Source: Procambarus clarkii
Lineage: Eukaryota; Arthropoda; Malacostraca; Decapoda; Cambaridae
DNA length: 64,000 bases
Assembly (NCBI RefSeq): GCF_040958095.1
Contig: NC_091214.1
Span: 10,201,371 to 10,265,370 of the forward strand
Reading direction: 5' to 3'
Below the pieces are notes generated by a model. That model made no database searches and was not told where the DNA came from. It saw nothing but the letters and a program-made list of their open reading frames with translations. This document shows positions 18,511-52,651 of the stretch, piece by piece. How positions within the stretch are numbered: the stretch's first letter is position 1; every line of letters begins with the position of its first letter. The translations under genes and the position numbers were made by a program.

Positions 18511-18516
18511 GATGTT

Positions 18517-25455: not shown

Positions 25456-25457
25456 TC

Positions 25458-25475: not shown

Positions 25476-25546
25476 GCTTAGTTGGAACCTATGAGCTAGG
25501 TTGTACGGTAAAATTTCGCACTTAAATTTTCTCTGAAAATTCAAAA

Positions 25547-27633: not shown

Positions 27634-28328
27634 TGTGAAGGAAAAAAGAAGCGTAGGTGTTCGGCAGTCCTCCTAATGGCTGGTGTCAATGCCAATCACA
27701 TTTACAAAAGAAAAGTTGACTGCGTGGCTGTTGCCTCCTGTGGTTAAGTAAGGGAAAACACGCAAAGCAAATCGTATGAACAATGAAACTTTAATTAACT
27801 TGAAAACAAATATGAACAAAGACAATCCCTTGGCTATGTACAGTGCAAACAAACAAGATTATAAAGTCAAAAAATAACATAAAATAAAATAGTGGGTTAC
27901 GTTACTCTACAATGAATAAAGACAAAAAATGAATTATCAGGGGCTGAGAATATTTGCTGGCTAAACACATCCAGTATTACAGAGAGCGTATATTAGATAG
28001 GTGTGTCAGCTTTGAGAGCACAGAATATTCTAAATCCAATAGCTTGTACACGCTCAGTCATCGGCTATGTAAATGGCGCTGAAGTGGAGTGCAGACGACG
28101 ATCCACCAATGGGACGTGTGCTAGCTGGAAGTGGTGATTTGGTGATCGACGAAGGTGGAGGGGGGAGGTGGAGAGCGAGTGTCTGATACGTATGCGCCCT
28201 GGCAGAAACGTATTTTACTCATTATGTACTACACTTGCTTGTAGTATCTAGATGTTGTAGATGTACTGAAGTAACATGATGATAGGAAAGAGCAGGCCAA
28301 ATCTCTTTTGAAGGAGATTGTCGTAACA
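27634..28328 (-). repeat. Gmr1-like LTR in unit B
   Basis: 695-bp copy without the 6-bp duplication of unit A. It is accompanied by 567 bp of leader but no gag or pol, so it is a duplication fragment rather than a solo LTR from recombination. Its promoter, if alive, would read into the leader and on into LINE-1b in the sense direction. Confidence 0.9.
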
Positions 28329-31300
28329 AGCTATATACATAACAGTAAAATAATGACACCTACAATTAATGATAACTAGAAAATAGTAATTGGTAACTCC
28401 ATCTGAACGAAAACTTAATACCAAATTTCTTAGATGTTTTTCGTAATATAAAGATTGACAGTAAAATATCTTATTCATTATGGAGTAATTAACAACAAAA
28501 TAAACTTTATTTTCATTGCAGAACATATATCAGAGCATACTAGTGACTCTGGCATTTAAAATAGTGTTATTTTTAAACAATTCGGTTGTAAACCCACAGA
28601 ACCGCCTATGCGCCGAATACAACATGGTATATAATTCATTACTTTAAATTCCATAAATAATCATTAATAATTTTCGGCAGCTATCGAGGTACTCCATAGG
28701 TAAATTCCTGTACTCTAACAAGATGCTACTTGCTGTTTAGTTGTTTAAATTCTTGGAAAATCGTAATGACCAGCGACATAAAATATAACAAGGAAATAGT
28801 AGCTGGTAACTGCAGGTGAACAAAAAATTTAATTCCAAATTGGTTAGATGTTTTCCTAAATATAAAGATCGACCTGAAGGAATTTTATGAATTATGGATT
28901 AATTAAGCAAAAAAACGTTTTTGATTAATTTTACTTGAAGAACAGAAATCAGAGAATAGTTAGTGAGTATATTTATATTGTATAATGGGAGAAAGCCCCT
29001 GGTAGCCACGAATTAAAATAGATGTAATTATCAAGAAAATAACGTCCAAAAACAGCCGTAGGGACAAACGGCATATGATGACGTTACTTCTAAGAGGACA
29101 GGTTGCTTGTTCTAGCTTGCTAAGCATTTGCGGTATCTTTGGGGGTGCTCCGCCGGAACCCCCAAAGTGATAAGCCTGCAGATAGGTAAGATATATTACC
29201 ATGAATTGTAATTAGTGTAAATTCAAATATTGCAACTATCAATTGCTAACTATATAGATGTAACTATTAATTGTAATTGATTGAATACTTTAACATTATA
29301 ATGATTATTCATTATAATTATTCTTTAATACTTTATTGTTATGCATTAGTCACTAATTATTTATCATTCACCCTAATTAGCTATTTGATTCATTAAAAAT
29401 AATTGCTTATCATTATACTATTTGTTATTATTATATTATTTATTATATAATTATAATCATTTATTATTAATATAAGAACATAAGAACATAAGAACAAAGG
29501 CAACTGCAGAAGGCCTATTGGCCCATACGAGGCAGCTCCTATTTATAACCACCCAATCCCACTCATATACTTGTCCAACCCGCGCTTGAAACAATCGAGG
29601 GACCCCACCTCCAGCACGTTACGTGGTAATTGGTAATCAACAACCCTGTTACTGAAACAGTATTTACCCAAGTCTTTCCTAAATCTAAACTTATCCAATT
29701 TATACCATATATATATATAATTTATACCATATATATATTAATATATTATTTATTATTATTAATTTATTATTTATTATTAATTTATTATTTATTATTAATT
29801 TATTATTTATTATTAATTTATTATTTACTATTATAAAATAAACAAGTCCCCAATCTGAGCGCGTTTTCTTCCAGCCGCAGAAAACAGGAACATATGTGGA
29901 AGCTTTGGGACCGTTACGATGAAAAACAGATAAGCACCTCGCAGTTCCTCGAGGAATGTTCGCGTTTTATCCCAGAAAGTTCCTGAACTAGAATTAGAAA
30001 ACAGCAGTCCGATTCCTGGTTGTTATTTTTCTTAAGCTAGTTGTAAATGATAATGTAAAAAATAGCCATTGAGGTCTGATTAACACTTTATGACCATATT
30101 ATCTATGTTTTCCTCCACTACTCAAAAGTTGAGTATGGGGTGCATAATAAATTAGCCTCGCCTTCAGTGGCACCTTTGGGCCGGATTCAGGAAGGTACTT
30201 ACGAAGGTTTTTCCTCTTAGCTAAGAGCGTTTTCCGTCTTAGCGCCTTCGTGGCGGCTACGTCCGTATTCAATTAACTACCCTAAGTGGAAAAATCTTCG
30301 TAAGTTCATTCCGGGATTTAAGTGTGGTTTCGACCACTCGTAGCTTTACGTAAACTGGATATAAGTCATTTTTTCTCTACTACATAACACTGGGATCGAT
30401 TTATGATATTGGAACATGACCAAAATATTATAGCTGGTGAATCTAGTGAAGAGTAATCCTTCGTGTTAGTTATATATGCATTCTCTGCTTGAAACTTGAA
30501 GTAAATATGTGTTTGATGATAGTAGAATTAGTTTTATAATAGCAAGATATTATACCAGTAGTTATTAAGTAAATAAACACTGGTGAACATGAAATATGAG
30601 AGAAGGTGATGAGCCCTGCCTGATGGGATCATTTACTATCACCAAATGCCCCTGTTCACCTAGTAGTAAGGGTGTACCTTAGCTATACATACCCATTTCT
30701 TTTATTTATTATTTATTTATTTATTTATGCATATACAAGAATGTACATAAGGAATGTGAGGATACAATTATGGTAATTACAGTCTTGTAAAGCCACTAGC
30801 ACGCGCAGCGTTTCGGGCAGGTCCTTAATCTAAGAAAATTTTAAGGAGGTAAATACTTGCAAAATTTATAGACAAAAAAATGATAACAGATTACATGGAA
30901 TGAAAAAAAAAAAGATGAGAGAAAATTATAGGTACAGTATATTAAAGCACATAGGTAGCTATGATTGATTGCAATGACAGCTTAAAATGGTAGTTGACAA
31001 CAAATTGGTAGGCACAATACAGCAGAAACAATATAAGATTGATTGCAATGACAGCTTGAATGGTAGTTGACAAAATTGGTAGTCACAATACAGCATATGG
31101 CTAGCACATGGCTATGGCTATTTCTAATTTATTTAGTTTGGTTTTATTTTGAAATTAAATCTGGGTGAGACATAAAATAAAAATATGCTGCACAAATGAT
31201 GTTAGGTAAGGAAGAGGGTAAAAATGTCAAAAACTTTATTCATTGAATACTTAAAGCTATAATTATGACTATATAGACTACTAAAAAAGAGAGAGGGAAG

Positions 31301-34188
31301 TAGGGGTCCAAGACCTCTTCCTGTTATACAATTTGGGTGTGGAACAAGTAATTATCAAAAGAAGGCACCATGCCGGGAAGGCTATGTAGCAGTAAGGCAG
31401 TGAGGTGAGGCAGCTACTTATTTGAGAAATGCTTATTTTATTTACCTTATAAGCTGAGGCAACTTATTTTATTTGAGGAATACTCAGCTGATTCCTCTAC
31501 ATTTAGCATGGAACAAATTTGTGTCCAAGACCTCTTTCTGTTACTCAATTTGGCTGTGTGTAACCAAACTAGAAGTGCTCTACAAATCAAGGGACCCAGA
31601 ATGTGGAATGACCTCCCAAATCAGGTCAAAGGCTGTACCTCTCTCAACCAGTTTAAGAGTTAAACCAAGTACTGCCTAATTAACTCCATGTAACCTAACT
31701 TACCTCCTAAATGTCAACCCATGTCTTGCTATTTTTTAAACAACGCTGTTCACCAACATGTGCAATTGCTGATTTATGCTATGTTAACCCCCTTTTTGTA
31801 TTTTTTATTCCTTCTTTCAACACAATTTATACCTAATCTCGATTGCTATTAAGTTTTAGTCTGTGTTTTTTCCCCCCACACCTTGCCCGAAATGCTATGA
31901 GTATTAGTGGCTTTAGGTATTGTATGTACTAGCTCTGCCTATAAATCCAACATTATGTTTGTAAATCAACTGTATGTACTTTTCCTGAATAAAATGTATT
32001 TATTATTTATTTTTTAATCAGTAAAGTATTAAAAGAAGGCACCAAGCTGGGAAGGCTATGTAGCACCATTGTGTGTAACAATAAACCAAATTTTTTTTAA
32101 CAAATAATGCACCTGTATGAGAAAACAAATCCTGTCAGCTGTAAAAATATTGATGCAGTTATTTAAATGAAAAATATAATGAAAGAAATATTACTGGTTT
32201 ATTTTTATCCTATCTTTTTGTACTGTACAGTATATCCAAGGAAGTGAAAAATTAAGACATAATGCACAATTTAATGAATGATTAGCATGGATTAGCAGTT
32301 CAAAAGAAATATGACTTGTATTACATATCAACATGAGATCTTAATGATCCATGGTCAACATGATTTAATAAGGATAATACAGTACTGTATTTGTAATAAT
32401 ACAAACTATAATTTAAAATCTTTATTACTGATTTTTTTTTAGTAAGAAGATTAGGTATACACAGCAATGTGCTGCTACCCTATTCTATATGGAATATTAC
32501 ACAGTGTAGATAAAAAACTAGCTATAAGTTTATCTAATACTCCCATCTCACAGGATGGTTAGACATACTGTACATGGAATCAATTTAGAAAATACCAGCC
32601 TCAATACAAAAAACAAATCAACTCTGACTAAACAACTCTAAGCAATTTTCACAAGAGGTAAGCACTGAATCATGGAAACATTATATTATAATTACTCTTA
32701 CCAGTTTCTACAAAACTCCTCTCAAACAATGTATTTTTAAACATGTTTAGGTATACACAGCAATGTGCTGCTTCCCTATTCTGTATAAAGGACCACACAG
32801 TGTAGATCAAAAACCAGCTACAAGCTCACCCAACATCCTCACCTCACAGGATGGCCAGTCATACATGGAATTAGGAGAGAACAAAATACTTAATGCTGAT
32901 CTATTAGCCTCCACTGGCAAAATCTGGGTGCAGCACAAGAATATCTTCCAATATTCCTGAGTGTATGAAGTAATTACAGAGCTCAAAGTACCTCATACCA
33001 TTTGGTATGAAGTCACTGATAACAGGACAATCACAGATATAGTGTTGGAGAGTATGTTCTCTCAAGTAGGACTGAAAACAGATGTTTTTTTCCACCAAGA
33101 GGGCAATAAACCCATGGAACCGCCTACCCGCTGAAGCCGTAAATGCCAAATTCCAGCTAAAAAATAACATTAATTCAATTGGCGGGCCCTTTAACAAGCC
33201 GCCGGCTTTCTGTCCTCTTCGAAGTCACTAGATAGTTAGTGGCCATTGGGTAAATTCAGTAAATATATACAATAATTGTCAGCGCATCTTCCGAGCAACA
33301 AGGACAGCTACACAGTATCTCTTAGAATTACGTAGGTAAACAACAAATGTAACATATTTGTTTACTACAATGTCGGTGCTGGCTGTAGAAGTTGAAAAAA
33401 CATTGTTTTACTTCGAAATATACTAATTTTATAAGAAAATTCGACGTAAATAGGACGCAGTAGAGCTCCTATAAGCCAGCGCTAAATCTTCAATATGAAG
33501 AATGTTGCTGCTCTCTGATTGGCCAAACGAAACACAGTAGTGACCTCTATCGGCACGCAGGTGAACCAACAATTTTCTTCCTAAGTATACCTTATTGAAT
33601 CGTACCTAAGCATCTTCTTAGGGCGCACTTAGGAACCTTCGTAGCAAACCCACTTACGAAGAAATACACAGAGCTTCCTGAATCTAGGTCCTTGTTTCTA
33701 AATGTGTTACAAACTCACACTGTATCTTGTGCTACCCACCCCGTCAACTCAAATTTTACTACAATATATTTATTTATTTATTTATTTATATATATACAAG
33801 AAGGTACATTGGGATTGTGAGGATACATATAACATAGTAATTACATTCTTGTAAAGCCACTAGTACACACAGCGTTTTGGGCAGGTCCTTAATCTAAGAA
33901 AATTTTAAGTAGGTAAATACTTGCAAAAATTATAACAGTTACATAGCAAGAAAAAAAATCAGAGAAAAAATGTAGGTATATTAAAGCACATAGGTAGCTC
34001 AGATTGATTGCAATGACAGCTTGAATGGTAGTTTAACAAAAACTTAGCAGGCACAATACAGCATATGGCTAGCACATAAAAGAATACAGCAATGAACACA
34101 ATGATAAAGTTGTTTGGATTAAGTACATAAAAATTAGGAGATTGGGTAACACTAGATACAGAGCAAATTTAAAGCTCAGTGTAGGAAA

Positions 34189-34866
34189 CTACGAAGATGA
34201 AATTAGGTACTTTTTGTTTTTGTTTTTAAATGAGGCATTTTGATAGCTTTGATAGTTTGTTTGATAGCTTTTCAATTCACTAGGGAGTGAGTTCCATAGA
34301 CTAGGTCCCTTAATTTGCATAGAGTGTTTACACAGATTAAGTTTGACCCTGGGGATATCAAAGAGATATATATTTCTGGTGTGGTAATAATGGGTCCTAT
34401 TACATCTGTCCAGGGAGAGTTTCAGAGCATGGTTTGCATTTAAGAACAGGGTTTTGTAAATGTAGTTGACACAAGAGAATGTGTTGAGGGAGTTAATATT
34501 TAGCAAGTTAAGGGATTTAAACAAGGGGGCTGAGTGTTGTCTGAAAGCAGAGTTTGTTATTATAGTGATAGCAGATTTTTGCTGGGTGATGATAGACTTA
34601 AGATGGTTTTCAGTGGTAGACCACCATGCACAAATACCATAATTAAGATAGGGATAAATTAGTGCATAATATAGTGAGAGGAGAGCAGAGTTAGGAACAT
34701 AATATCTTATTTTGGAGAGTATACCAACTGTTTTAGAGACTTTCTTGCTTATGTGTTGAATGTGGGTGCTGAAGTTGAGTCTCTTGTCTAGGAATAGGCC
34801 AAGAAACTTTCCATCATTTTTATTACTGATGTTAATGTTGTCTATCTGTAGCTGAATTGCATTCAT
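34189..34866 (-). pseudogene. LINE-2 RT C-terminus in unit B
   Basis: 225-codon open stretch identical to the one at 19619 except one residue (VSKTVG for VSKSVG). It is followed upstream by the LINE-1 (aat)n end exactly as in unit A. Confidence 0.88.
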
Positions 34867-35156
34867 AATAATAATAATAATAATAATAATTTATATTTAG
34901 GTAAGGTACATACATACAATAAATTTTTACAAAGATTGGTTGACTTATAGGTAGAGCTAGTACATACAATGCCTAAAGCCACTATTACGCAAAGCGTTTC
35001 GGGCATGATAAACTTAAATGACAAGCTTAATACTAATTGAGCATAATGAGTAGAATGAAAACATAGATGAAAAAGCAGCACAAATACAATTATGTCGACA
35101 AACAGCGCTCTTTAAAGAAAAACAGACATTGGTTGACAATAGAAGGGTAAGGTAGG

Positions 35157-36124
35157 TTACAGGGAATTTATTAGGTATAGCTTCGTTTTTAACTTAAACT
35201 GGTTGAGAAAGGTACAGTCTTTAACATGGTTGGGAAGGTCATTCCACATTCTGGGCCCCTTGATTTGTAGAGCATTTCTAGTTTGATTAAGTCGTACTCT
35301 AGGAATATCAAAACTGTATTTATTTCTGGTGTGGTTCTCATGGGTTCTGTTACAACCTTCTATGAAGCTTTTGAGATCAGGATTGGCATTATAGTTTAGC
35401 GTTTTATATATGTATACTACACATGAGAGAATGTGCAGTGACTTAATGTCTAACATATTCAGAGATTTGAGTAGGGGTACCGAGTGATGTCTGGGGCCAG
35501 AATTGGATATTGTCCTAATAGCAGCTTTGTGTTGAGTAATTAGAGGACGTAAGTGATTTTGGGTAGTAGAGCCCCAAGCACAAATACCATAGTTGAGATA
35601 TGGATAGATAAGGGAGTAATAGAGAGTCACCAGGGCAGGGCGTGGTACATAATATATGATCTTAGAAAGAATGCCCACAGTTTTTGAAACTATTTTTGAT
35701 ATGTTTAGAATGTGCCCCTGGAAATTCAGCTTGTGGTCAATGAGAATGCCAAGGAATTTGCCATCTAATTTGTTACAAATTTGGGTATTGTTTATTTTGA
35801 GATTTATTTGATTAGAGGATTTATTGCCAAACAGAATATAGAAAGTTTTGTCAAAGTTAAGGGTGAGTTTGTTGGCAGTTAGCCACAGATGGACTTTATT
35901 TAGCTCAGTATTTACTGTGGCATTTAGAGCAAGGGGATCAGGACTGGAGTAAATGAATGTTGTGTCGTCAGCAAATAGAATTGGTTCGAGGTGTTGGGAG
36001 GCATTTGGAAGGTCATTAATGTAGATGAGAAAGAGGAGAGGGCCAAGTATGCTGCCCTGGGGAACACCAATGTTGATGGGTAGGGTGGGAGAAATTGTAT
36101 TATTCACAGAAACACATTGGAGCC
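35157..36124 (-). pseudogene. Hybrid LINE-1/LINE-1b RT fragment at the B/C junction
   Basis: 316-codon stretch from MNNTISPTLP to the C-terminus, with intact FADD. It shares the change IIYYVP (for IRYYVP) with units C and D but not A or LINE-1b. The markers caaagttaag and ggttcgagg are LINE-1 type; the final cagaaacacattggagcc is LINE-1b type. The exchange point therefore lies between 35986 and 36110. Confidence 0.85.
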
Positions 36125-36691
36125 TTAACTATATGATACTTACAGAATTAGCGTTCTTTGTGCTCTGAAAAAAGAAAGCTAATTCCCTACCTGAGTAAAT
36201 ATTATCATCTCTGACCGACGTTTAGGGGTGCGAGTGTCAACTGGTGATGAGAACTGTTGTTCAGGTCCCAACTCAACAGCATACTCCGTGCTAGAGGAAG
36301 TATGGCGCTCTGTATCTTTCTTTGGTCGGATTGCACAAGATAGGGTGCGTGGCCCGAAGACAAACCAAAGTACCAGGGTACCTAAATGATGATCTGCCTG
36401 AATTTGAGAAATATTCTAGGGACGAAAAAGGTGGAATACACGAGTAATAACACTGAGTGATGGACGACCAATTAAGAGAGTGACTGAGGCCTCCAGTCAC
36501 CACGTAATCCACAGTTATCCAACACTCACAATATGTTACCCTCGAAATGCACAAAATACACAGCACCATATAAATATTAAAAGTTATGAAAATATTGAAT
36601 AGCAACTGTATCAATGCCAAGTACACTTACCACAAATTGATGTTCTAATACTAGTACCTGAGTGAGGCCTCCCGGACAGGCCCCCATTAAA

Positions 36692-37386
36692 TGTGAAGGA
36701 AAAAAGAAGCGTAGGTGTTCGGCAGTCCTCCTAATGGCTGGTGTCAATGCCAATCACATTTACAAAAGAAAAGTTGACTGCGTGGCTGTTGCCTCCTGTG
36801 GTTAAGTAAGGGAAAACACGCAAAGCAAATCGTATGAACAATGAAACTTTAATTAACTTGAAAACAAATATGAACAAAGACAATCCCTTGGCTATGTACA
36901 GTGCAAACAAACAAGATTATAAAGTCAAAAAATAACATAAAATAAAATAGTGGGTTACGTTACTCTACAATGAATAAAGACAAAAAATGAATTATCAGGG
37001 GCTGAGAATATTTGCTGGCTAAACACATCCAGTATTACACAGAGCGTATATTAGATAGGTGTGTCAGCTTTGAGAGCACAGAATATTCTAAATCCAATAG
37101 CTTGTACACGCTCAGTCATCGGCTATGTAAATGGCGCTGAAGTGGAGTGCAGACGACGATCCACCAATGGGACGTGTGCTAGCTGGAAGTGGTGATTTGG
37201 TGATCGACGAAGGTGGAGGGGGGAGGTGGAGAGCGAGTGTCTGATACGTATGCGCCCTGGCAGAAACGTATTTTACTCAATATGTACTACACTTGCTTGT
37301 AGTATCTAGATGTTGTAGATGTACTGAAGTAACATGATGATAGGAAAGAGCAGGCCAAATCTCTTTTGAAGGAGATTGTCGTAACA
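36692..37386 (-). repeat. Gmr1-like LTR in unit C
   Basis: 695-bp copy, same limits as in unit B, flanked on the right by agctatatac as in the original insertion. Confidence 0.9.
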
Positions 37387-40236
37387 AGCTATATACATAA
37401 CAGTAAAATAATGACACCTACAATTAATGATAACTAGAAAATAGTAATTGGTAACTCCATCTGAACGAAAACTTAGTACCAAATTTCTTAGATGTTTTTC
37501 GTAATATAAAGATTGACAGTAAAATATCTTATTCATTATGGAGTAATTAACAACAAAATAAACTTTATTTTCATTGCAGAACATATATCAGAGCATACTA
37601 GTGACTCTGGCATTTAAAATAGTGTTATTTTTAAACAATTCGGTTGTAAACCCACAGAACCGCCTACGCGCCGAATACAACATGGTATATAATTCATTAC
37701 TTTAAATTCCATAAATAATCATTAATAATTTTCGGCAGCTATCGAGGTACTCCATAGGTAAATTCCTGTACTCTAACAAGATGCTACTTGCTGTTTAGTT
37801 GTTTAAATTCTTGGAAAATCGTAATGACCAGCGACATAAAATATAACAAGGAAATAGTAGCTGGTAACTGCATGTGAACAAAAAATTTAATTCCAAATTG
37901 GTTAGATGTTTTCCTAAATATAAAGATCGACCTGAAGGAATTTTATGAATTATGGATTAATTAAGCAAAAAAACGTTTTTGCTTAATTTTACTTGAAGAA
38001 CAGAAATCAGAGAATAGTTAGTGAGTATATTTATATTGTATAATGGGAGAAAGCCCCTGGTAGCCACGAATTAAAATAGATGTAATTATCAAGAAAATAA
38101 CGTCCAAAAACAGCCGTAGGGACAAACGGCATATGATGACGTTACTTCTAAGAGGACAGGTTGCTTGTTCTAGCTTGCTAAGCATTTGCGGTATCTTTGG
38201 GGGTGCTCCGCCGGAACCCCCAAAGTGATAAGCCTGCAGATAGGTAAGATATATTACCATGAATTGTAATTAGTGTAAATTCAAATATTGCAACTATCAA
38301 TTGCTAACTATATAGATGTAACTATTAATTGTAATTGATTGAATACTTTAACATTATAATGATTATTCATTATAATTATTCTTTAATACTTTATTGTTAT
38401 GCATTAGTCACTAATTATTTATCATTCACCCTAATTAGCTATTTGATTCATTAAAAATAATTGCTTATCATTATACTATTTGTTATTATTATATTATTTA
38501 TTATATAATTATAATCATTTATTATTAATATAAGAACATAAGAACATAAGAACAAAGGCAACTGCAGAAGGCCTATTGGCCCATACGAGGCAGCTCCTAT
38601 TTATAACCACCCAATCCCACTCATATACTTGTCCAACCCGCGCTTGAAACAATCGAGGGACCCCACCTCCAGCACGTTACGTGGTAATTGGTAATCAACA
38701 ACCCTGTTACTGAAACAGTATTTACCCAAGTCTTTCCTAAATCTAAACTTATCCAATTTATACCATATATATATATAATTTATACCATATATATATTAAT
38801 ATATTATTTATTATTATTAATTTATTATTTATTATTAATTTATTATTTACTATTATAAAATAAACAAGTCCCCAATCTGAGCGCGTTTTCTTCCAGCCGC
38901 AGAAAACAGGAACATATGTGGAAGCTTTGGGACCGTTACGATGAAAAACAGATAAGCACCTCGCAGTTCCTCGAGGAATGTTCGCGTTTTATCCCAGAAA
39001 GTTCCTGAACTAGAATTAGAAAACAGCAGTCCGATTCCTGGTTGTTATTTTTCTTAAGCTAGTTGTAAATGATAATGTAAAAAATAGCCATTGAGGTCTG
39101 ATTAACACTTTATGACCATATTATCTATGTTTTCCTCCACTACTCAAAAGTTGAGTATGGGGTGCATAATAAATTAGCCTCGCCTTCAGTGGCACCTTTG
39201 GGCCGGATTCAGGAAGGTACTTACGAAGGTTTTTCCTCTTAGCTAAGAGCGTTTTCCGTCTTAGCGCCTTCGTGGCGGCTACGTCCGTATTCAATTAACT
39301 ACCCTAAGTGGAAAAATCTTCGTAAGTTCATTCCGGGATTTAAGTGTGGTTTCGACCACTCGTAGCTTTACGTAAACTGGATATAAGTCATTTTTTCTCT
39401 ACTACATAACACTGGGATCGATTTATGATATTGGAACATGACCAAAATATTATAGCTGGTGAATCTAGTGAAGAGTAATCCTTCGTGTTAGTTATATATG
39501 CATTCTCTGCTTGAAACTTGAAGTAAATATGTGTTTGATGATAGTAGAATTAGTTTTATAATAGCAAGATATTATACCAGTAGTTATTAAGTAAATAAAC
39601 ACTGGTGAACATGAAATATGAGAGAAGGTGATGAGCCCTGCCTGATGGGATCATTTACTATCACCAAATGCCCCTGTTCACCTAGTAGTAAGGGTGTACC
39701 TTAGCTATACATACCCATTTCTTTTATTTATTATTTATTTATTTATTTATGCATATACAAGAATGTACATAAGGAATGTGAGGATACAATTATGGTAATT
39801 ACAGTCTTGTAAAGCCACTAGCACGCGCAGCGTTTCGGGCAGGTCCTTAATCTAAGAAAATTTTAAGGAGGTAAATACTTGCAAAATTTATAGACAAAAA
39901 AATGATAACAGATTACATGGAATGAAAAAAAAAAAGATGAGAGAAAATTATAGGTACAGTATATTAAAGCACATAGGTAGCTATGATTGATTGCAATGAC
40001 AGCTTAAAATGGTAGTTGACAACAAATTGGTAGGCACAATACAGCAGAAACAATATAAGATTGATTGCAATGACAGCTTGAATGGTAGTTGACAAAAATT
40101 GGTAGTCACAATACAGCATATGGCTAGCACATGGCTATGGCTATTTCTAATTTATTTAGTTTGGTTTTATTTTGAAATTAAATCTGGGTGAGACATAAAA
40201 TAAAAATATGCTGCACAAATGATGTTAGGTAAGGAA

Positions 40237-40665
40237 TGACCTTCCCAACCATGTTAAAGACTGTACCTCTCTCAACCAGTTTAAGATAAAAACTAAACAC
40301 TACCTAATAAATTCCCTGTAATCTACCTCACTCCTCTATTGTCAACCCATGTCTGTTATTTTCTTTTTTTTTTTCTTTTTTTTTAATCAACACTGTTTGT
40401 CAACCTATTGTATTTGTGCTGCTTTTTCAGTCATGTTCCCCCTTTTTTTTTATCTTTATTTGTATTTGTTCTCAACATCTTTTATTCTTTATGCTCAATT
40501 AGTATTAAGTTCTAGATATTAATGTTTTTTCTTGCCCGAAACGCATTGCGTAATAGTGGCTTTAGGCATTGTATGTACTAGCTCTATCTATATATCAATC
40601 CTTTAATGTAACATCACTTGTATGTATATACCTTACCTGAATAAACATCTGAATCTGAATCTGAA
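40237..40665 (+). mobile_element. Unit-C-specific 5'-truncated LINE insertion
   Basis: Present only in unit C; units A, B and D read taaggaagagggtaaaaatg across the empty site. It starts in the LINE-1-type polyprotein tail (tgaccttcccaaccatg), carries a ~320-bp 3' UTR including the gcccgaaacgc...gcgtaatag core, and ends with tandem tctgaa hexamers. No target duplication longer than the shared gaa is seen. This pins a transposition event to after the duplication that made C. Confidence 0.9.
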
Positions 40666-43639
40666 GAGGGTAAAAATGTCAAAAACTTTATTCATTGAAT
40701 ACTTAAAGCTATAATTATGACTATATAGACTACTAAAAAAGAGAGAGGGAAGTAGGGGTCCAAGACCTCTTCCTGTTATACAATTTGGGTGTGGAACAAG
40801 TAATTATCAAAAGAAGGCACCATGCCGGGAAGGCTATGTAGCAGTAAGGCAGTGAGGTGAGGCAGCTACTTATTTGAGAAATGCTTATTTTATTTACCTT
40901 ATAAGCTGAGGCAACTTATTTTATTTGAGGAATACTCAGCTGATTCCTCTACATTTAGCATGGAACAAATTTGTGTCCAAGACCTCTTTCTGTTACTCAA
41001 TTTGGCTGTGTGTAACCAAACTAGAAGTGCTCTACAAATCAAGGGACCCAGAATGTGGAATGACCTCCCAAATCAGGTCAAAGGCTGTACCTCTCTCAAC
41101 CAGTTTAAGAGTTAAACCAAGTACTGCCTAATTAACTCCATGTAACCTAACTTACCTCCTAAATGTCAACCCATGTCTTGCTATTTTTTAAACAACGCTG
41201 TTCACCAACATGTGCAATTGCTGATTTATGCTATGTTAACCCCCTTTTTGTATTTTTTATTCCTTCTTTCAACACAATTTATACCTAATCTCGATTGCTA
41301 TTAAGTTTTAGTCTGTGTTTTTTCCCCCCACACCTTGCCCGAAATGCTATGAGTATTAGTGGCTTTAGGTATTGTATGTACTAGCTCTGCCTATAAATCC
41401 AACATTATGTTTGTAAATCAACTGTATGTACTTTTCCTGAATAAAATGTATTTATTATTTATTTTTTAATCAGTAAAGTATTAAAAGAAGGCACCAAGCT
41501 GGGAAGGCTATGTAGCACCATTGTGTGTAACAATAAACCAAATTTTTTTTAACAAATAATGCACCTGTATGAGAAAACAAATCCTGTCAGCTGTAAAAAT
41601 ATTGATGCAGTTATTTAAATGAAAAATATAATGAAAGAAATATTACTGGTTTATTTTTATCCTATCTTTTTGTACTGTACAGTATATCCAAGGAAGTGAA
41701 AAATTAAGACATAATGCACAATTTAATGAATGATTAGCATGGATTAGCAGTTCAAAAGAAATATGACTTGTATTACATATCAACATGAGATCTTAATGAT
41801 CCATGGTCAACATGATTTAATAAGGATAATACAGTACTGTATTTGTAATAATACAAACTATAATTTAAAATCTTTATTACTGATTTTTTTTAGTAAGAAG
41901 ATTAGGTATACACAGCAATGTGCTGCTACCCTATTCTATATGGAATATTACACAGTGTAGATAAAAAACTAGCTATAAGTTTATCTAATACTCCCATCTC
42001 ACAGGATGGTTAGACATACTGTACATGGAATCAATTTAGAAAATACCAGCCTCAATACAAAAAACAAATCAACTCTGACTAAACAACTCTAAGCAATTTT
42101 CACAAGAGGTAAGCACTGAATCATGGAAACATTATATTATAATTACTCTTACCAGTTTCTACAAAACTCCTCTCAAACAATGTATTTTTAAACATGTTTA
42201 GGTATACACAGCAATGTGCTGCTTCCCTATTCTGTATAAAGGACCACACAGTGTAGATCAAAAACCAGCTACAAGCTCACCCAACATCCTCACCTCACAG
42301 GATGGCCAGTCATACATGGAATTAGGAGAGAACAAAATACTTAATGCTGATCTATTAGCCTCCACTGGCAAAATCTGGGTGCAGCACAAGAATATCTTCC
42401 AATATTCCTGAGTGTATGAAGTAATTACAGAGCTCAAAGTACCTCATACCATTTGGTATGAAGTCACTGATAACAGGACAATCACAGATATAGTGTTGGA
42501 GAGTATGTTCTCTCAAGTAGGACTGAAAACAGATGTTTTTTTCCACCAAGAGGGCAATAAACCCATGGAACCGCCTACCCGCTGAAGCCGTAAATGCCAA
42601 ATTCCAGCTAAAAAATAACATTAATTCAATTGGCGGGCCCTTTAACAAGCCGCCGGCTTTCTGTCCTCTTCGAAGTCACTAGATAGTTAGTGGCCATTGG
42701 GTAAATTCAGTAAATATATACAATAATTGTCAGCGCATCTTCCGAGCAACAAGGACAGCTACACAGTATCTCTTAGAATTACGTAGGTAAACAACAAATG
42801 TAACATATTTGTTTACTACAATGTCGGTGCTGGCTGTAGAAGTTGAAAAAACATTGTTTTACTTCGAAATATACTAATTTTATAAGAAAATTCGACGTAA
42901 ATAGGACGCAGTAGAGCTCCTATAAGCCAGCGCTAAATCTTCAATATGAAGAATGTTGCTGCTCTCTGATTGGCCAAACGAAACACAGTAGTGACCTCTA
43001 TCGGCACGCAGGTGAACCAACAATTTTCTTCCTAAGTATACCTTATTGAATCGTACCTAAGCATCTTCTTAGGGCGCACTTAGGAACCTTCGTAGCAAAC
43101 CCACTTACGAAGAAATACACAGAGCTTCCTGAATCTAGGTCCTTGTTTCTAAATGTGTTACAAACTCACACTGTATCTTGTGCTACCCACCCCGTCAACT
43201 CAAATTTTACTACAATATATTTATTTATTTATTTATTTATATATATACAAGAAGGTACATTGGGATTGTGAGGATACATATAACATAGTAATTACATTCT
43301 TGTAAAGCCACTAGTACACACAGCGTTTTGGGCAGGTCCTTAATCTAAGAAAATTTTAAGTAGGTAAATACTTGCAAAAATTATAACAGTTACATAGCAA
43401 GAAAAAAAATCAGAGAAAAAATGTAGGTATATTAAAGCACATAGGTAGCTCAGATTGATTGCAATGACAGCTTGAATGGTAGTTTAACAAAAACTTAGCA
43501 GGCACAATACAGCATATGGCTAGCACATAAAAGAATACAGCAATGAACACAATGATAAAGTTGTTTGGATTAAGTACATAAAAATTAGGAGATTGGGTAA
43601 CACTAGATACAGAGCAAATTTAAAGCTCAGTGTAGGAAA

Positions 43640-44317
43640 CTACGAAGATGAAATTAGGTACTTTTTGTTTTTGTTTTTAAATGAGGCATTTTGATAGCTT
43701 TGATAGTTTGTTTGATAGCTTTTCAATTCACTAGGGAGTGAGTTCCATAGACTAGGTCCCTTAATTTGCATAGAGTGTTTACACAGATTAAGTTTGACCC
43801 TGGGGATATCAAAGAGATATATATTTCTGGTGTGGTAATAATGGGTCCTATTACATCTGTCCAGGGAGAGTTTCAGAGCATGGTTTGCATTTAAGAACAG
43901 GGTTTTGTAAATGTAGTTGACACAAGAGAATGTGTTGAGGGAGTTAATATTTAGCAAGTTAAGGGATTTAAACAAGGGGGCTGAGTGTTGTCTGAAAGCA
44001 GAGTTTGTTATTATAGTGATAGCAGATTTTTGCTGGGTGATGATAGACTTAAGATGGTTTTCAGTGGTAGACCACCATGCACAAATACCATAATTAAGAT
44101 AGGGATAAATTAGTGCATAATATAGTGAGAGGAGAGCAGAGTTAGGAACATAATATCTTATTTTGGAGAGTATACCAACTGTTTTAGAGACTTTCTTGCT
44201 TATGTGTTGAATGTGGGTGCTGAAGTTGAGTCTCTTGTCTAGGAATAGGCCAAGAAACTTTCCATCATTTTTATTACTGATGTTAATGTTGTCTATCTGT
44301 AGCTGAATTGCATTCAT
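43640..44317 (-). pseudogene. LINE-2 RT C-terminus in unit C
   Basis: Same 225 codons as in unit B, including VSKTVG. Upstream (aat)n is shortened. Confidence 0.88.
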
Positions 44318-44595
44318 AATAATAATAATTTATATTTAGGTAAGGTACATACATACAATAAATTTTTACAAAGATTGGTTGACTTATAGGTAGAGCTAGT
44401 ACATACAATGCCTAAAGCCACTATTACGCAAAGCGTTTCGGGCATGATAAACTTAAATGACAAGCTTAATACTAATTGAGCATAATGAGTAGAATGAAAA
44501 CATAGATGAAAAAGCAGCACAAATACAATTATGTCGACAAACAGCGCTCTTTAAAGAAAAACAGACATTGGTTGACAATAGAAGGGTAAGGTAGG

Positions 44596-45563
44596 TTACA
44601 GGGAATTTATTAGGTATAGCTTCGTTTTTAACTTAAACTGGTTGAGAAAGTTACAGTCTTTAACATGGTTGGGAAGGTCATTCCACATTCTGGGCCCCTT
44701 GATTTGTAGAGCATTTCTAGTTTGATTAAGTCGTACTCTAGGAATATCAAAACTGTATTTATTTCTGGTGTGGTTCTCATGGGTTCTGTTACAACCTTCT
44801 ATGAAGCTTTTGAGATCAGGATTGGCATTATAGTTTAGCGTTTTATATATGTATACTACACATGAGAGAATGTGCAGTGACTTAATGTCTAACATATTCA
44901 GAGATTTGAGTAGGGGTACCGAGTGATGTCTGGGGCCAGAATTGGATATTGTCCTAATAGCAGCTTTGTGTTGAGTAATTAGAGGACGTAAGTGATTTTG
45001 GGTAGTAGAGCCCCAAGCACAAATACCATAGTTGAGATATGGATAGATAAGGGAGTAATAGAGAGTCACCAGGGCAGGGCGTGGTACATAATATATGATC
45101 TTAGAAAGAATGCCCACAGTTTTTGAAACTATTTTTGATATGTTTAGAATGTGCCCCTGGAAATTCAGCTTGTGGTCAATGAGAATGCCAAGGAATTTGC
45201 CATCTAATTTGTTACAAATTTGGGTATTGTTTATTTTGAGATTTATTTGATTAGAGGATTTATTGCCAAACAGAATATAGAAAGTTTTGTCAATGTTAAG
45301 GGTGAGTTTGTTGGCAGTTAGCCACAGATGGACTTTATTTAGCTCAGTATTTACTGTGGCATTTAGAGCAAGGGGATCAGGACTGGAGTAAATGAAGGTT
45401 GTTTTGTCAGCAAATAGAATTGGTTTGAGGTGTTGGGAGGCATTTGGAAGGTCATTAATGTAGATGAGAAAGAGGAGAGGGCCAAGTATGCTGCCCTGGG
45501 GAACACCAATGTTGATGGGTAGGGTGGGAGAAATTGTATTATTCACAGAAACACATTGGAGCC
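44596..45563 (-). pseudogene. Hybrid LINE-1/LINE-1b RT fragment at the C/D junction, FADK
   Basis: 316-codon stretch. From the C-terminus up to at least 45153 it carries LINE-1 markers (aatgtgcccctgg, IIYYVP). From 45294 onward it carries LINE-1b markers (caatgttaag, gttgttttgtcagc giving FADK, ggtttgagg, cagaaacac). The exchange lies between 45153 and 45294, distinct from that in unit B. The FADK change removes a metal-binding aspartate. Confidence 0.87.
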
Positions 45564-46130
45564 TTAACTATATGATACTTACAGAATTAGCGTTCTTTGT
45601 GCTCTGAAAAAAGAAAGCTAATTCCCTACCTGAGTAAATATTATCATCTCTGACCGACGTTTAGGGGTGCGAGTGTCAACTGGTGATGAGAACTGTTGTT
45701 CAGGTCCCAACTCAACAGCATACTCCGTGCTAGAGGAAGTATGGCGCTCTGTATCTTTCTTTGGTCGGATTGCACAAGATAGGGTGCGTGGCCCGAAGAC
45801 AAACCAAAGTACCAGGGTACCAAAATGATGATCTGCCTGAATTTGAGAAATATTCTAGGGACGAAAAAGGTGGAATACACGAGTAATAACACTGAGTGAT
45901 GGACGACCAATTAAGAGAGTGACTGAGGCCTCCAGTCACCACGTAATCCACAGTTATCCAACACTCACAATATGTTACCCTCGAAATGCACAAAATACAC
46001 AGCACCATATAAATATTAAAAGTTATGAAAATATTGAATAGCAACTGTATCAATGCCAAGTACACTTACCACAAATTGATGTTCTAATACTAGTACCTGA
46101 GTGAGGCCTCCCGGACAGGCCCCCATTAAA

Positions 46131-46825
46131 TGTGAAGGAAAAAAGAAGCATAGGTGTTCGGCAGTCCTCCTAATGGCTGGTGTCAATGCCAATCACATTT
46201 ACAAAAGAAAAGTTGACTGCGTGGCTGTTGCCTCCTGTGGTTAAGTAAGGGAAAACACGCAAAGCAAATCGTATGAACAATGAAACTTTAATTAACTTGA
46301 AAACAAATATGAACAAAGACAATCCCTTGGCTATGTACAGTGCAAACAAACAAGATTATAAAGTCAAAAAATAACATAAAATAAAATAGTGGGTTACGTT
46401 ACTCTACAATGAATAAAGACAAAAAATGAATTATCAGGGGCTGAGAATATTTGCTGGCTAAACACATCCAGTATTACACAGAGCGTATATTAGATAGGTG
46501 TGTCAGCTTTGAGAGCACAGAATATTCTAAATCCAATAGCTTGTACACGCTCAGTCATCGGCTATGTAAATGGCGCTGAAGTGGAGTGCAGACGACGATC
46601 CACCAATGGGACGTGTGCTAGCTGGAAGTGGTGATTTGGTGATCGACGAAGGTGGAGGGGGGAGGTGGAGAGCGAGTGTCTGATACGTATGCGCCCTGGC
46701 AGAAACGTATTTTACTCAATATGTACTACACTTGCTTGTAGTATCTAGATGTTGTAGATGTACTGAAGTAACATGATGATAGGAAAGAGCAGGCCAAATC
46801 TCTTTTGAAGGAGATTGTCGTAACA
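46131..46825 (-). repeat. Gmr1-like LTR in unit D
   Basis: 695-bp copy, same limits as the copies in B and C; one substitution near its left end (gaagcatagg instead of gaagcgtagg). Confidence 0.9.
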
Positions 46826-49800
46826 AGCTATATACATAACAGTAAAATAATGACACCTACAATTAATGATAACTAGAAAATAGTAATTGGTAACTCCATC
46901 TGAACGAAAACTTAATACCAAATTTCTTAGATGTTTTTCGTAATATAAAGATTGACAGTAAAATATCTTATTCATTATGGAGTAATTAACAACAAAATAA
47001 ACTTTATTTTCATTGCAGAACATATATCAGAGCATACTAGTGACTCTGGCATTTAAAATAGTGTTATTTTTAAACAATTCGGTTGTAAACCCACAGAACC
47101 GCCTACGCGCCGAATACAACATGGTATATAATTCATTACTTTAAATTCCATAAATAATCATTAATAATTTTCGGCAGCTATCGAGGTACTCCATAGGTAA
47201 ATTCCTGTACTCTAACAAGATGCTACTTGCTGTTTAGTTGTTTAAATTCTTGGAAAATCGTAATGACCAGCGACATAAAATATAACAAGGAAATAGTAGC
47301 TGGTAACTGCAGGTGAACAAAAAATTTAATTCCAAATTGGTTAGATGTTTTCCTAAATATAAAGATCGACCTGAAGGAATTTTATGAATTATGGATTAAT
47401 TAAGCAAAAAAACGTTTTTGCTTAATTTTACTTGAAGAACAGAAATCAGAGAATAGTTAGTGAGTATATTTATATTGTATAATGGGAGAAAGCCCCTGGT
47501 AGCCACGAATTAAAATAGATGTAATTATCAAGAAAATAACGTCCAAAAACAGCCGTAGGGACAAACGGCATATGATGACGTTACTTCTAAGAGGACAGGT
47601 TGCTTGTTCTAGCTTGCTAAGCATTTGCGGTATCTTTGGGGGTGCTCCGCCGGAACCCCCAAAGTGATAAGCCTGCAGATAGGTAAGATATATTACCATG
47701 AATTGTAATTAGTGTAAATTCAAATATTGCAACTATCAATTGCTAACTATATAGATGTAACTATTAATTGTAATTGATTGAATACTTTAACATTATAATG
47801 ATTATTCATTATAATTATTCTTTAATACTTTATTGTTATGCATTAGTCACTAATTATTTATCATTCACCCTAATTAGCTATTTGATTCATTAAAAATAAT
47901 TGCTTATCATTATACTATTTGTTATTATTATATTATTTATTATATAATTATAATCATTTATTATTAATATAAGAACATAAGAACATAAGAACAAAGGCAA
48001 CTGCAGAAGGCCTATTGGCCCATACGAGGCAGCTCCTATTTATAACCACCCAATCCCACTCATATACTTGTCCAACCCGCGCTTGAAACAATCGAGGGAC
48101 CCCACCTCCAGCACGTTACGTGGTAATTGGTAATCAACAACCCTGTTACTGAAACAGTATTTACCCAAGTCTTTCCTAAATCTAAACTTATCCAATTTAT
48201 ACCATATATATATATAATTTATACCATATATATATTAATATATTATTTATTATTATTAATTTATTATTTATTATTAATTTATTATTTACTATTATAAAAT
48301 AAACAAGTCCCCAATCTGAGCGCGTTTTCTTCCAGCCGCAGAAAACAGGAACATATGTGGAAGCTTTGGGACCGTTATGATGAAAAACAGATAAGCACCT
48401 CGCAGTTCCTCGAGGAATGTTCGCGTTTTATCCCAGAAAGTTCCTGAACTAGAGTTAGAAAACAGCAGTCCGATTCCTGGTTGTTATTTTTCTTAAGCTA
48501 GTTGTAAATGATAATGTAAAAAATAGCCATTGAGGTCTGATTAACACTTTATGACCATATTATCTATGTTTTCCTCCACTACTCAAAAGTTGAGTATGGG
48601 GTGCATAATAAATTAGCCTCGCCTTCAGTGGCACCTTTGGGCCGGATTCAGGAAGGTACTTACGAAGGTTTTTCCTCTTAGCTAAGAGCGTTTTCCGTCT
48701 TAGCGCCTTCGTGGCGGCTACGTCCGTATTCAATTAACTACCCTAAGTGGAAAAATCTTCGTAAGTTCATTCCGGGATTTAAGTGTGGTTTCGACCACTC
48801 GTAGCTTTACGTAAACTGGATATAAGTCATTTTTTCTCTACTACATAACACTGGGATCGATTTATGATATTGGAACATGACCAAAATATTATAGCTGGTG
48901 AATCTAGTGAAGAGTAATCCTTCGTGTTAGTTATATATGCATTCTCTGCTTGAAACTTGAAGTAAATATGTGTTTGATGATAGTAGAATTAGTTTTATAA
49001 TAGCAAGATATTATACCAGTAGTTATTAAGTAAATAAACACTGGTGAACATGAAATATGAGAGAAGGTGATGAGCCCTGCCTGATGGGATCATTTACTAT
49101 CACCAAATGCCCCTGTTCACCTAGTAGTAAGGGTGTACCTTAGCTATACATACCCATTTCTTTTATTTATTATTTATTTATTTATTTATGCATATACAAG
49201 AATGTACATAAGGAATGTGAGGATACAATTATGGTAATTACAGTCTTGTAAAGCCACTAGCACGCGCAGCGTTTCGGGCAGGTCCTTAATCTAAGAAAAT
49301 TTTAAGGAGGTAAATACTTGCAAAATTTATAGACAAAAAAATGATAACAGATTACATGGAATGAAAAAAAAAAAAGATGAGAGAAAATTATAGGTACAGT
49401 ATATTAAAGCACATAGGTAGCTATGATTGATTGCAATGACAGCTTAAAATGGTAGTTGACAACAAATTGGTAGGCACAATACAGCAGAAACAATATAAGA
49501 TTGATTGCAATGACAGCTTGAATGGTAGTTGACAAAAATTGGTAGTCACAATACAGCATATGGCTAGCACATGGCTATGGCTATTTCTAATTTATTTAGT
49601 TTGGTTTTATTTTGAAATTAAATCTGGGTGAGACATAAAATAAAAATATGCTGCACAAATGATGTTAGGTAAGGAAGAGGGTAAAAATGTCAAAAACTTT
49701 ATTCATTGAATACTTAAAGCTATAATTATGACTATATAGACTACTAAAAAAGAGAGAGGGAAGTAGGGGTCCAAGACCTCTTCCTGTTATACAATTTGGG

Positions 49801-52651
49801 TGTGGAACAAGTAATTATCAAAAGAAGGCACCATGCCGGGAAGGCTATGTAGCAGTAAGGCAGTGAGGTGAGGCAGCTACTTATTTGAGAAATGCTTATT
49901 TTATTTACCTTATAAGCTGAGGCAACTTACTTTATTTGAGGAATACTCAGCTGATTCCTCTACATTTAGCATGGAACAAATTTGTGTCCAAGACCTCTTT
50001 CTGTATCTCAATTTGGCTGTGTGTAACCAAACTAGAAGTGCTCTACAAATCAAGGGACCCAGAATGTGGAATGACCTCCCAAATCAGGTCAAAGGCTGTA
50101 CCTCTCTCAACCAGTTTAAGAGTTAAACCAAGTACTGCCTAATTAACTCCATGTAACCTAACTTACCTCCTAAATGTCAACCCATGTCTTGCTATTTTTT
50201 AAACAACGCTGTTCACCAACATGTGCAATTGCTGATTTATGCTATGTTAACCCCCTTTTTGTATTTTTTATTCCTTCTTTCAACACAATTTATACCTAAT
50301 CTCGATTGCTATTAAGTTTTAGTCTGTGTTTTTTCCCCCCACACCTTGCCCGAAATGCTATGAGTATTAGTGGCTATAGGTATTGTATGTACTAGCTCTG
50401 CCTATAAATCCAACATTATGTTTGTAAATCAACTGTATGTACTTTTCCTGAATAAAATGTATTTATTATTTATTTTTTAATCAGTAAAGTATTAAAAGAA
50501 GGCACCAAGCTGGGAAGGCTATGTAGCACCATTGTGTGTAACAATAAACCAAATTTTTTTTAACAAATAATGCACCTGTATGAGAAAACAAATCCTGTCA
50601 GCTGTAAAAATATTGATGCAGTTATTTAAATGAAAAATATAATGAAAGAAATATTACTGGTTTATTTTTATCCTATCTTTTTGTACTGTACAGTATATCC
50701 AAGGAAGTGAAAAATTAAGACATAATGCACAATTTAATGAATGATTAGCATGGATTAGCAGTTCAAAAGAAATATGACTTGTATTACATATCAACATGAG
50801 ATCTTAATGATCCATGGTCAACATGATTTAATAAGGATAATACAGTACTGTATTTGTAATAATACAAACTATAATTTAAAATCTTTATTACTGATTTTTT
50901 TTTAGTAAGAAGATTAGGTATACACAGCAATGTGCTGCTACCCTATTCTATATGGAATATTACACAGTGTAGATAAAAAACTAGCTATAAGTTTATCTAA
51001 TACTCCCATCTCACAGGATGGTTAGACATACTGTACATGGAATCAATTTAGAAAATACCAGCCTCAATACAAAAAACAAATCAACTCTGACTAAACAACT
51101 CTAAGCAATTTTCACAAGAGGTAAGCACTGAATCATGGAAACATTATATTATAATTACTCTTACCAGTTTCTACAGAACTCCTCTCAAACAATGTATTTT
51201 TAAACATGTTTAGGTATACACAGCAATGTGCTGCTTCCCTATTCTGTATAAAGGACCACACAGTGTAGATCAAAAACCAGCTACAAGCTCACCCAACATC
51301 CTCACCTCACAGGATGGCCAGTCATACATGGAATTAGGAGAGAACAAAATACTTAATGCTGATCTATTAGCCTCCACTGGCAAAATCTGGGTGCAGCACA
51401 AGAATATCTTCCAATATTCCTGAGTGTATGAAGTAATTACAGAGCTCAAAGTACCTCATACCATTTGGTATGAAGTCACTGATAACAGGACAATCACAGA
51501 TATAGTGTTGGAGAGTATGTTCTCTCAAGTAGGACTGAAAACAGATGTTTTTTTCCACCAAGAGGGCAATAAACCCATGGAACCGCCTACCCGCTGAAGC
51601 CGTAAATGCCAAATTCCAGCTAAAAAATAACATTAATTCAATTGGCGGGCCCTTTAACAAGCCGCCGGCTTTCTGTCCTCTTCGAAGTCACTAGATAGTT
51701 AGTGGCCATTGGGTAAATTCAGTAAATATATACAATAATTGTCAGCGCATCTTCCGAGCAACAAGGACAGCTACACAGTATCTCTTAGAATTACGTAGGT
51801 AAACAACAAATGTAACATATTTGTTTACTACAATGTCGGTGCTGGCTGTAGAAGTTGAAAAAACATTGTTTTACTTCGAAATATACTAATTTTATAAGAA
51901 AATTCGACGTAAATAGGACGCAGTAGAGCTCCTATAAGCCAGCGCTAAATCTTCAATATGAAGAATGTTGCTGCTCTCTGATTGGCCAAACGAAACACAG
52001 TAGTGACCTCTATCGGCACGCAGGTGAACCAACAATTTTCTTCCTAAGTATACCTTATTGAATCGTACCTAAGCATCTTCTTAGGGCGCACTTAGGAACC
52101 TTCGTAGCAAACCCACTTACGAAGAAATACACAGAGCTTCCTGAATCTTGGTCCTTGTTTCTAAATGTGTTACAAACTCACACTGTATCTTGTGCTACCC
52201 ACCCCGTCAACTCAAATTTTACTACAATATATTTATTTATTTATTTATTTATATATATACAAGAAGGTACATTGGGATTGTGAAGATACATATAACATAG
52301 TAATTACATTCTTGTAAAGCCACTAGTACACACAGCGTTTTGGGCAGGTCCTTAATCTAAGAAAATTTTAAGTAGGTAAATACTTGCAAAAATTATAACA
52401 GTTACATAGCAAGAAAAAAAATCAGAGAAAAAATGTAGGTATATTAAAGCACATAGGTAGCTCAGATTGATTGCAATGACAGCTTGAATGGTAGTTTAAC
52501 AAAAACTTAGCAGGCACAATACAGCATATGGCTAGCACATAAAAGAATACAGCAATGAACACAATGATAAAGTTGTTTGGATTAAGTACATAAAAATTAG
52601 GAGATTGGGTAACACTAGATACAGAGCAAATTTAAAGCTCAGTGTAGGAAA

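What the first reader, a model, noticed from the sequence alone, without database searches (positions are those of the whole stretch)
35157..45563. Two independent exchange points in hybrid LINEs at the ends of B and C
The B-end LINE switches from LINE-1 to LINE-1b markers between 35986 and 36110; the C-end LINE switches between 45153 and 45294. Both exchanges would delete the same 5,512 bp lying between LINE-1 (20296) and LINE-1b (25746) in the A+X unit. This is direct evidence for non-allelic homologous recombination between co-oriented LINE copies, at least twice, or once plus gene conversion.
Basis: partly seen in the sequence, partly recalled or inferred. Interest (0 to 1): 0.78.

Follow-up and report, generated by a model that had tools for sequence, protein, structure and literature searches.

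The report
LINE repeats recombined inside crayfish array
Two neighbouring copies in a young tandem DNA array of a crayfish-like genome each lack the same 5.5-kb stretch because two similar retrotransposon copies recombined, with switch points at two different places, which is a well-known kind of genome rearrangement seen here in unusually clear detail.

Summary
In LINE segments of 1,012 bp (97.6% identical), the B-end LINE carries 21 LINE-1 alleles, then 2 LINE-1b alleles (switch 35988-36109). The C-end LINE carries 16, then 7 (switch 45155-45293). D is LINE-1 at 23 of 23 markers. In a 4.03-Gb assembly the exact LINE-1 haplotype of 21379-21421 occurs only in A, B and D. The LINE-1b version occurs at three places: LINE-1b, C and one copy on contig C55. 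The array junction occurs only at the three unit borders. Against 17 dispersed copies, B and C carry alleles derived in LINE-1 and alleles derived in LINE-1b, so they are recombinant deletions, not ancestral forms. The array began by non-homologous joining of a Ty3 leader to the LINE-1b ORF with 2 bp of microhomology; the deletions came later by homologous exchange. Two exchanges are the simplest minimum. Two deletions, or one deletion plus a later exchange, remain unresolved: the one SNP that sets B and C apart outside the tract is ancestral. LINE-LINE NAHR is well known, so this is a new member of a known kind. Read-level proof is missing; the contig ends inside unit D.

The parts
6423..13787 (-). 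Ty3-like LTR retrotransposon; 3' LTR 6423-7118, 5' LTR 13087-13787, AGCT at 6419-6422 and 13788-13791. The array's left border (12519) lies inside it
   Evidence: LTR pair 95.8% identical; integrase domains above cut-off, RT at 29.4 bits against a cut-off of 29.6; flanks
12519..27065 (.). Unit A+X (14,547 bp), the undeleted unit, leftmost in the array
   Evidence: self-BLAST; junction sequence
20294..22795 (-). LINE-1: 5'-truncated non-LTR element inserted in another LINE; exchange partner 1
   Evidence: RVT_1 1e-31; in L021 and L033 the alignments to 20293 and to 22796 abut with 3 bp overlap, that is, an empty site
25746..27067 (-). LINE-1b: second co-oriented LINE, cut at the unit border; RT motif FADD changed to FADK; exchange partner 2
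   Evidence: alignment; D in 120 of the 120 listed homologs, of 6,751 found
27066..36123 (.). Unit B (9,058 bp), lacking the 5,512 bp
34864..36125 (-). Hybrid LINE at end of B
   Evidence: 21 LINE-1 alleles then 2 LINE-1b alleles
35988..36109 (.). Exchange interval of B: 122 bp identical in both parents
36124..45562 (.). Unit C (9,439 bp), lacking the 5,512 bp; carries its own 426-bp LINE insert
44315..45564 (-). Hybrid LINE at end of C; carries FADK as LINE-1b does
   Evidence: 16 LINE-1 alleles then 7 LINE-1b alleles; haplotype at 3 places genome-wide
45155..45293 (.). Exchange interval of C: 139 bp identical in both parents
45563..55709 (.). Unit D: undeleted form as far as assembled; the contig ends inside its LINE-1
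   Evidence: 23 of 23 LINE-1 alleles; continues 1.1 kb into X; 500 N follow
27057..27087 (+). Array junction LINE-1b / Ty3 leader, 2-bp microhomology CT; identical at 36115-36145 and 45554-45584
   Evidence: three places in the whole assembly, none elsewhere with up to 2 mismatches

Best explanation
A 14.5-kb segment was duplicated in tandem when a broken end inside LINE-1b was joined, with 2 bp of microhomology, to the leader of a Ty3 element. Inside the resulting array, co-oriented LINE-1 and LINE-1b then recombined homologously and deleted 5,512 bp, leaving one hybrid LINE per deleted unit. Two different switch points mean two exchange events as the simplest minimum (unless both are strands of one unrepaired heteroduplex). 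Either the deletion happened twice, or it happened once and a later crossover or conversion moved the switch point in one descendant unit; the first two rivals are these two sub-cases. Shown: the hybrids, their parents, the polarity, the single junction type. Inferred: homologous repair as the process, the joining mechanism, and the order of the second event.
For: Clean single switches at different places. Of 24 LINE-1/LINE-1b differences (23 substitutions, 1 indel), 17 dispersed copies show 8 to be derived in LINE-1, 15 in LINE-1b, and 1 (21145, 12 to 5) undecided. B and C both carry derived alleles of both parents. C has FADK like LINE-1b, where 120 of 120 listed homologs have Asp. LINE-1 haplotype: 3 exact places in 4.03 Gb (A, B, D). 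LINE-1b haplotype: 3 (LINE-1b, C, one on C55). Junction: 3. The exchanges lie in the 2nd and 3rd longest identical runs of the pair (139 and 122 bp). 97.6% identity over 1 kb fits what is reported for human LINE-LINE NAHR: 97-98%, with 96% as minimum, and no sharp length limit, though the molecularly confirmed events there had 4 kb or more (PMC4344489, passages).
Against: No reads, second assembly or other individuals were available. The assembly breaks inside unit D, and D has the most private SNPs (11 single-copy columns, against 3 in A, 4 in B and 9 in C, of which 5 in C are the LINE-1b tract). Of B's two LINE-1b-type alleles only 21545 is derived in LINE-1b, and 1 of 17 dispersed copies has it too; the other, 21540, is the family state. 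So in B the exchange rests on one derived SNP plus the junction and flanks. One site (21086) conflicts with the A+D grouping. The C55 copy could in principle be a donor for C. In a human survey most LINE-1-mediated events (60 of 96) were non-homologous (PMC9675761, passages).
Confidence: 0.85

Rival explanations
1. Sub-case 1. One deletion, then unit duplication, then a second exchange: C from a B-type hybrid by crossover with LINE-1b, or B from a C-type hybrid by conversion of at least 133 bp from LINE-1.
For: B and C are adjacent and both deleted; one crossover with LINE-1b turns a B-type unit into a C-type unit without a double event (inferred). Needs as many exchanges as two deletions.
Against: No derived SNP outside the tract unites B and C against A and D, and B-C is as distant as A-B.
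Confidence: 0.45
2. Sub-case 2. Two independent deletions: the same LINE-1/LINE-1b pair recombined twice, in two units, at two points.
For: Different switch points. Star-like distances: B-C 7, A-B 7, A-C 6 SNPs outside LINE-1. The T shared by B and C at 34731/44182 is ancestral: in the 100 listed of 2,944 places only A and D have the other base.
Against: B and C are adjacent and both deleted, which one event plus unit duplication also gives. Needs as many exchanges as the alternative.
Confidence: 0.38
3. Assembly or polishing artefact: the assembler switched between LINE copies, or short-read polishing moved alleles.
For: The contig ends in the array; D has excess, partly homopolymer-type, differences. 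LINE-1b's 3' flank occurs only once in the assembly (up to 3 mismatches), so D's own LINE-1b is unassembled.
Against: The hybrids sit between units with private variants of their own (B: 4 single-copy SNPs and a 36-bp expansion; C: 4 such SNPs outside the tract and a 426-bp insertion). There are two distinct switch points, and the haplotypes are nearly unique genome-wide.
Confidence: 0.1
4. B and C are the ancestral form, and the A+X unit arose by insertion.
For: None found.
Against: LINE-1 in A is a nested insertion, and two related host LINE copies show the empty site. B and C lack the host LINE's other half and carry derived alleles of both parents.
Confidence: 0.01

Closest known systems
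Human LINE-LINE-mediated NAHR (PMC4344489; passages read)
   Same: Directly oriented LINE copies of high identity (97-98%, 96% as minimum), exchange narrowed to an identical stretch between markers (80 +/- 53 bp excluding outliers there, 122 and 139 bp here), and crossover sites that vary at the same pair.
   Different: Patient CNVs with confirmed homology of 4 kb or more there (1 kb only by statistics); here 1 kb, inside a tandem array of a crustacean, with two products side by side in one assembly.
Hybrid L1Md_T at the mouse Abp duplication (PMC3669608; passages read)
   Same: A block-wise switch of parent-specific sites inside a hybrid LINE, read as the scar of NAHR.
   Different: A duplication with one hybrid there; here deletions with two hybrids of different switch point.
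CUP1 tandem arrays of yeast (PMC4232551; abstract and start of the introduction read)
   Same: The first duplication is non-homologous; homologous exchange can then change an existing array.
   Different: A copper-resistance gene array there; here no ORF of 130 aa or more other than LINE pieces lies in units B-D (exons not searched) and no function is apparent.
TE-mediated rearrangements in human genomes (PMC9675761; passages read)
   Same: Mostly deletions (445 of 493); homology-driven LINE-1 events join similar copies (median 93.5%); LINE-1 events have median length 4.5 kb.
   Different: Most LINE-1 events there were non-homologous (60 of 96). No tandem array context in the passages read.

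Membership tests
NAHR between LINE copies | Two copies in direct orientation with at least about 96% identity over about 1 kb | tested here: met
   97.6% over 1,012 bp, same strand
NAHR between LINE copies | Product holds one hybrid copy with a single switch in an identical stretch and lacks exactly one spacer plus one copy | tested here: met
   B and C, 5,512 bp missing
NAHR between LINE copies | Marker alleles in the hybrid descend from the two named parents | tested here: met
   Alleles polarised with 17 dispersed copies; near-unique haplotypes. For B only one LINE-1b-derived SNP (21545) plus the junction
NAHR between LINE copies | Crossover rather than single-strand annealing or slippage; reciprocal product | not testable with these tools
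   Only one assembly held; no reads
Gene conversion | Tract bounded on both sides by recipient alleles | tested here: inconclusive
   The B/C difference fits conversion or crossover. Site 21086 in A is a one-site candidate inside a 166-bp identical run
Non-LTR retrotransposon (LINE) | Reverse transcriptase, dispersed copies, 3' tail | tested here: met
   RVT_1 1e-31; 17 fetched dispersed copies at 98.0-99.0%; (TTA)n tail on the minus strand
Non-LTR retrotransposon (LINE) | Endonuclease domain in the element | tested here: not met
   LINE-1 is 5'-truncated; only RVT_1 found

The most novel reading that the evidence does not exclude
The LINE-1/LINE-1b pair is a recurrent exchange site. The same 5.5 kb was deleted independently twice, and LINE-1b also converted LINE-1 of unit A at 21086, all while units A, B and C came to differ by only 6-7 SNPs in about 8 kb. 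Exchange at this pair would then keep pace with or outrun point mutation of the same kilobase. A still bolder variant: B and C are the two strands of a single crossover whose heteroduplex (133 to 394 bp) was never repaired.
Probability: 0.25. Interest if true: 0.5.

Novelty: new member of a known kind. Interest (0 to 1): 0.3.

Why it matters
It is a compact history, in one assembled sequence, of how a tandem array starts by non-homologous joining and is then trimmed by LINE-LINE exchange. The genome is a 4-Gb one rich in such elements: 4,075 first-look candidates for the 1.5-kb LINE query, of which only 40 were scored, and 2,944 places for a stretch of the host LINE. If the pair proves recurrent, the locus would allow the rate of LINE-mediated deletion to be measured by PCR in wild animals or in sperm.

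Tried and rejected
B/C as ancestral form: rejected. SNP 34731/44182 as proof that B and C share one deletion: I first leaned on it, then found it to be the ancestral base in close copies, so it is no evidence. A cruder protein count had pointed the other way: at that residue, among 61 of 120 distant homologs matched by a pattern, 33 have Ser (as A and D) and 15 Thr (as B and C). I give the close DNA copies more weight. Site 21086 as proof that B, C and D form a group: weakened, because the same base occurs at 17 other LINE places (20 exact matches in all). A right-hand end of the array: in 100 kb to the right only pieces of dispersed repeats match (547 bp at most), and LINE-1b's 3' flank occurs nowhere else (up to 3 mismatches). 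Copy E (62668-63490) ends before the exchange region and is about 8% diverged, so it did not help. Rfam at gathering threshold: nothing. tRNA: none. Crayfish papers: searches gave listings only, nothing on this locus. The host is judged a decapod, crayfish-like, from Ty3 relatives: among the named hits Palaemon 54%, Procambarus 66% (83% of the query) and 74% (50%), Macrobrachium 49% (fish and others also hit).

Full report
Observation. Self-BLAST shows a tandem array: A+X at 12519-27065, B 27066-36123, C 36124-45562, and D from 45563 to the contig end at 55709, followed by 500 N. B and C lack 5,512 bp that A has between homologous points of two co-oriented LINE segments, LINE-1 and LINE-1b (97.6% identical over 1,012 bp). 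At 23 substitution markers B reads LINE-1 x21 then LINE-1b x2, C reads LINE-1 x16 then LINE-1b x7, and D reads LINE-1 x23. The switches lie in 35988-36109 and 45155-45293. These are the third and second longest perfectly identical runs of the pair (166, 139, 122 bp). This is what homology-dependent exchange favours, but the three runs make up 427 of 985 bp, so it is no significant result.

Parents and polarity. The first genome search scored 40 of 4,075 first-look candidates in a 4.03-Gb assembly of 2,308 contigs. The 17 fetched dispersed copies (L004-L020, the best matches, 98.0-99.0% identical to LINE-1) served as outgroup. Of 24 differences, 8 are derived in LINE-1 (20639, 20766, 20847, 21122, 21285, 21388, 21417, 21540), 15 in LINE-1b (among them 21394, 21396, 21545), each on the word of at least 15 of 17 copies, and 21145 is undecided (12 to 5). 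B carries the LINE-1-derived alleles up to 21417, the family state at 21540 and the LINE-1b-derived allele at 21545, which 1 of 17 copies also has. C carries LINE-1-derived alleles up to 21122 and LINE-1b-derived alleles at 21394, 21396 and 21545. So C is a hybrid on several polarised sites, and B on one such site plus its junction and flanks. At protein level LINE-1b has Lys for the second Asp of FADD (Asp in the 120 listed homologs of 6,751 found), and C has the same change. The LINE-1 haplotype at 21379-21421 occurs exactly three times in the genome, in A, B and D. The LINE-1b haplotype occurs three times: LINE-1b, C, and one on contig C55. The last is a possible but distant alternative donor.

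Ancestral structure. LINE-1 (20294-22795) is inserted in another LINE. Two related copies of that host LINE, in L021 and L033, align to both sides with 3 bp overlap, that is, an empty site. B and C have lost LINE-1's 5' part and the rest of the host LINE, so they are the derived forms.

Origin of the array. The left border 12519 lies within a Ty3-like element with both LTRs (6423-13787, LTRs 95.8% identical, AGCT on both sides). The unit junction joins LINE-1b's ORF to the Ty3 leader, sharing only CT with the sequence that continues in LINE-1. This junction occurs three times in the assembly, at the three unit borders, and nowhere else with up to 2 mismatches. So one non-homologous joining founded the array (inference from these results), and the LINE deletions came later.

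One deletion or two. Outside LINE-1 the units differ by: A-B 7, A-C 6, B-C 7, A-D 12, B-D 15, C-D 14 SNPs. Of 30 two-state SNP columns over the whole unit, 27 are single-copy (D 11, C 9, B 4, A 3); 5 of C's 9 are the LINE-1b tract. The 3 two-against-two columns all group B with C, but two of these are the LINE-1b-type alleles of the exchange itself. The third, 20161/34731/44182/53194, is ancestral in B and C by DNA: in the 100 listed of 2,944 places of this host-LINE stretch only A and D have the other base, and the copies in L016, L021 and L033 agree. A protein count on distant homologs leaned the other way (Ser 33, Thr 15 of 61). So A and D most likely share a derived mutation, while B and C share none that sets them apart outside the tract. 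Site 21086 groups B, C and D against A, but its base also occurs at 17 other LINE places. It may have been present in the founding LINE-1, with A changed back by point mutation or by conversion from LINE-1b (tract within 20956-21121). Two LINE-LINE exchanges are the simplest minimum. One deletion plus a later exchange, and two deletions, remain about equally good.

Reservations. D has the most private SNPs, and in the LINE it shows single-base indels and clustered changes near the contig end. Of the 11 A-D differences in 20544-22676, 7 are private to D, 2 (21570, 21628) are changes in A, 1 (21842) is mixed in the family, and 1 is 21086. Six further D changes and A's change at 18586 are private by 6 of 6 dispersed copies each. 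LINE-1b's 3' flank occurs once in the assembly, so D's LINE-1b is not assembled. No unit copy continues in the 100 kb to the right. No reads or other individuals were available.

Comparison with the literature. Human LINE-LINE NAHR needs about 97-98% identity (96% at least), shows no sharp length limit, and has different crossover points at one pair (PMC4344489, passages). A hybrid L1 marks the latest Abp duplication in mouse (PMC3669608, passages). CUP1 arrays start by non-homologous recombination (PMC4232551, abstract and start of introduction). TE-mediated deletions are common in humans, though most LINE-1 events there were non-homologous (PMC9675761, passages). The finding is therefore a clear new example of a known process. 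I did not find this locus in print in the searches (listings), which say little about a single locus.

Noticed in passing
40237-40662: Private 426-bp insertion in unit C: the 3' end of a related LINE in + orientation with a CTGAAT-repeat tail; A and D show the empty site. It suggests recent activity of a related LINE family.
   Followed up: partly
55710-56209: 500-N gap directly at the end of unit D's assembled LINE-1; no unit copy follows in the window or the next 100 kb, so the array's true length and right border are unknown.
   Followed up: partly
54590-55025: Eight differences between D and A, three of them single-base indels, cluster near D's contig end, with none in the following 0.7 kb: local consensus errors, mixed copies or true divergence.
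   Followed up: partly
29732-29833: Unit B has a 36-bp expansion of an AT-rich minisatellite that is shorter in A, C and D.
   Followed up: no
57523-58383: C2H2 zinc-finger ORF with an array of 84-bp finger repeats (6.7 copies, 88% matches).
   Followed up: no
15601-19121: About 3.1 kb of the unit is itself a dispersed repeat, interrupted in the array at 16132-16543: the query 17200-18760 found 36 other places of over 1.2 kb at 97-99%; extent from six fetched copies.
   Followed up: partly
G000 contig C44, 0.56-4.10 Mb: Nine of the 17 other LINE places with the base of B, C and D at 21086 lie within about 3.5 Mb of one contig, hinting at a local cluster or burst.
   Followed up: no
G000 contig C55:24352044-24352086: One more exact copy of the rare FADK haplotype of LINE-1b, so a LINE variant without the catalytic Asp may have been copied.
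   Followed up: no
L031:7501-10000 (2.5 kb left of the window): Reads N: an assembly gap or a withheld stretch.
   Followed up: no
59360-59698 and 61203-61292: A 21-bp tandem repeat of 16 copies (66% matches) and a TA run of 46 copies.
   Followed up: no
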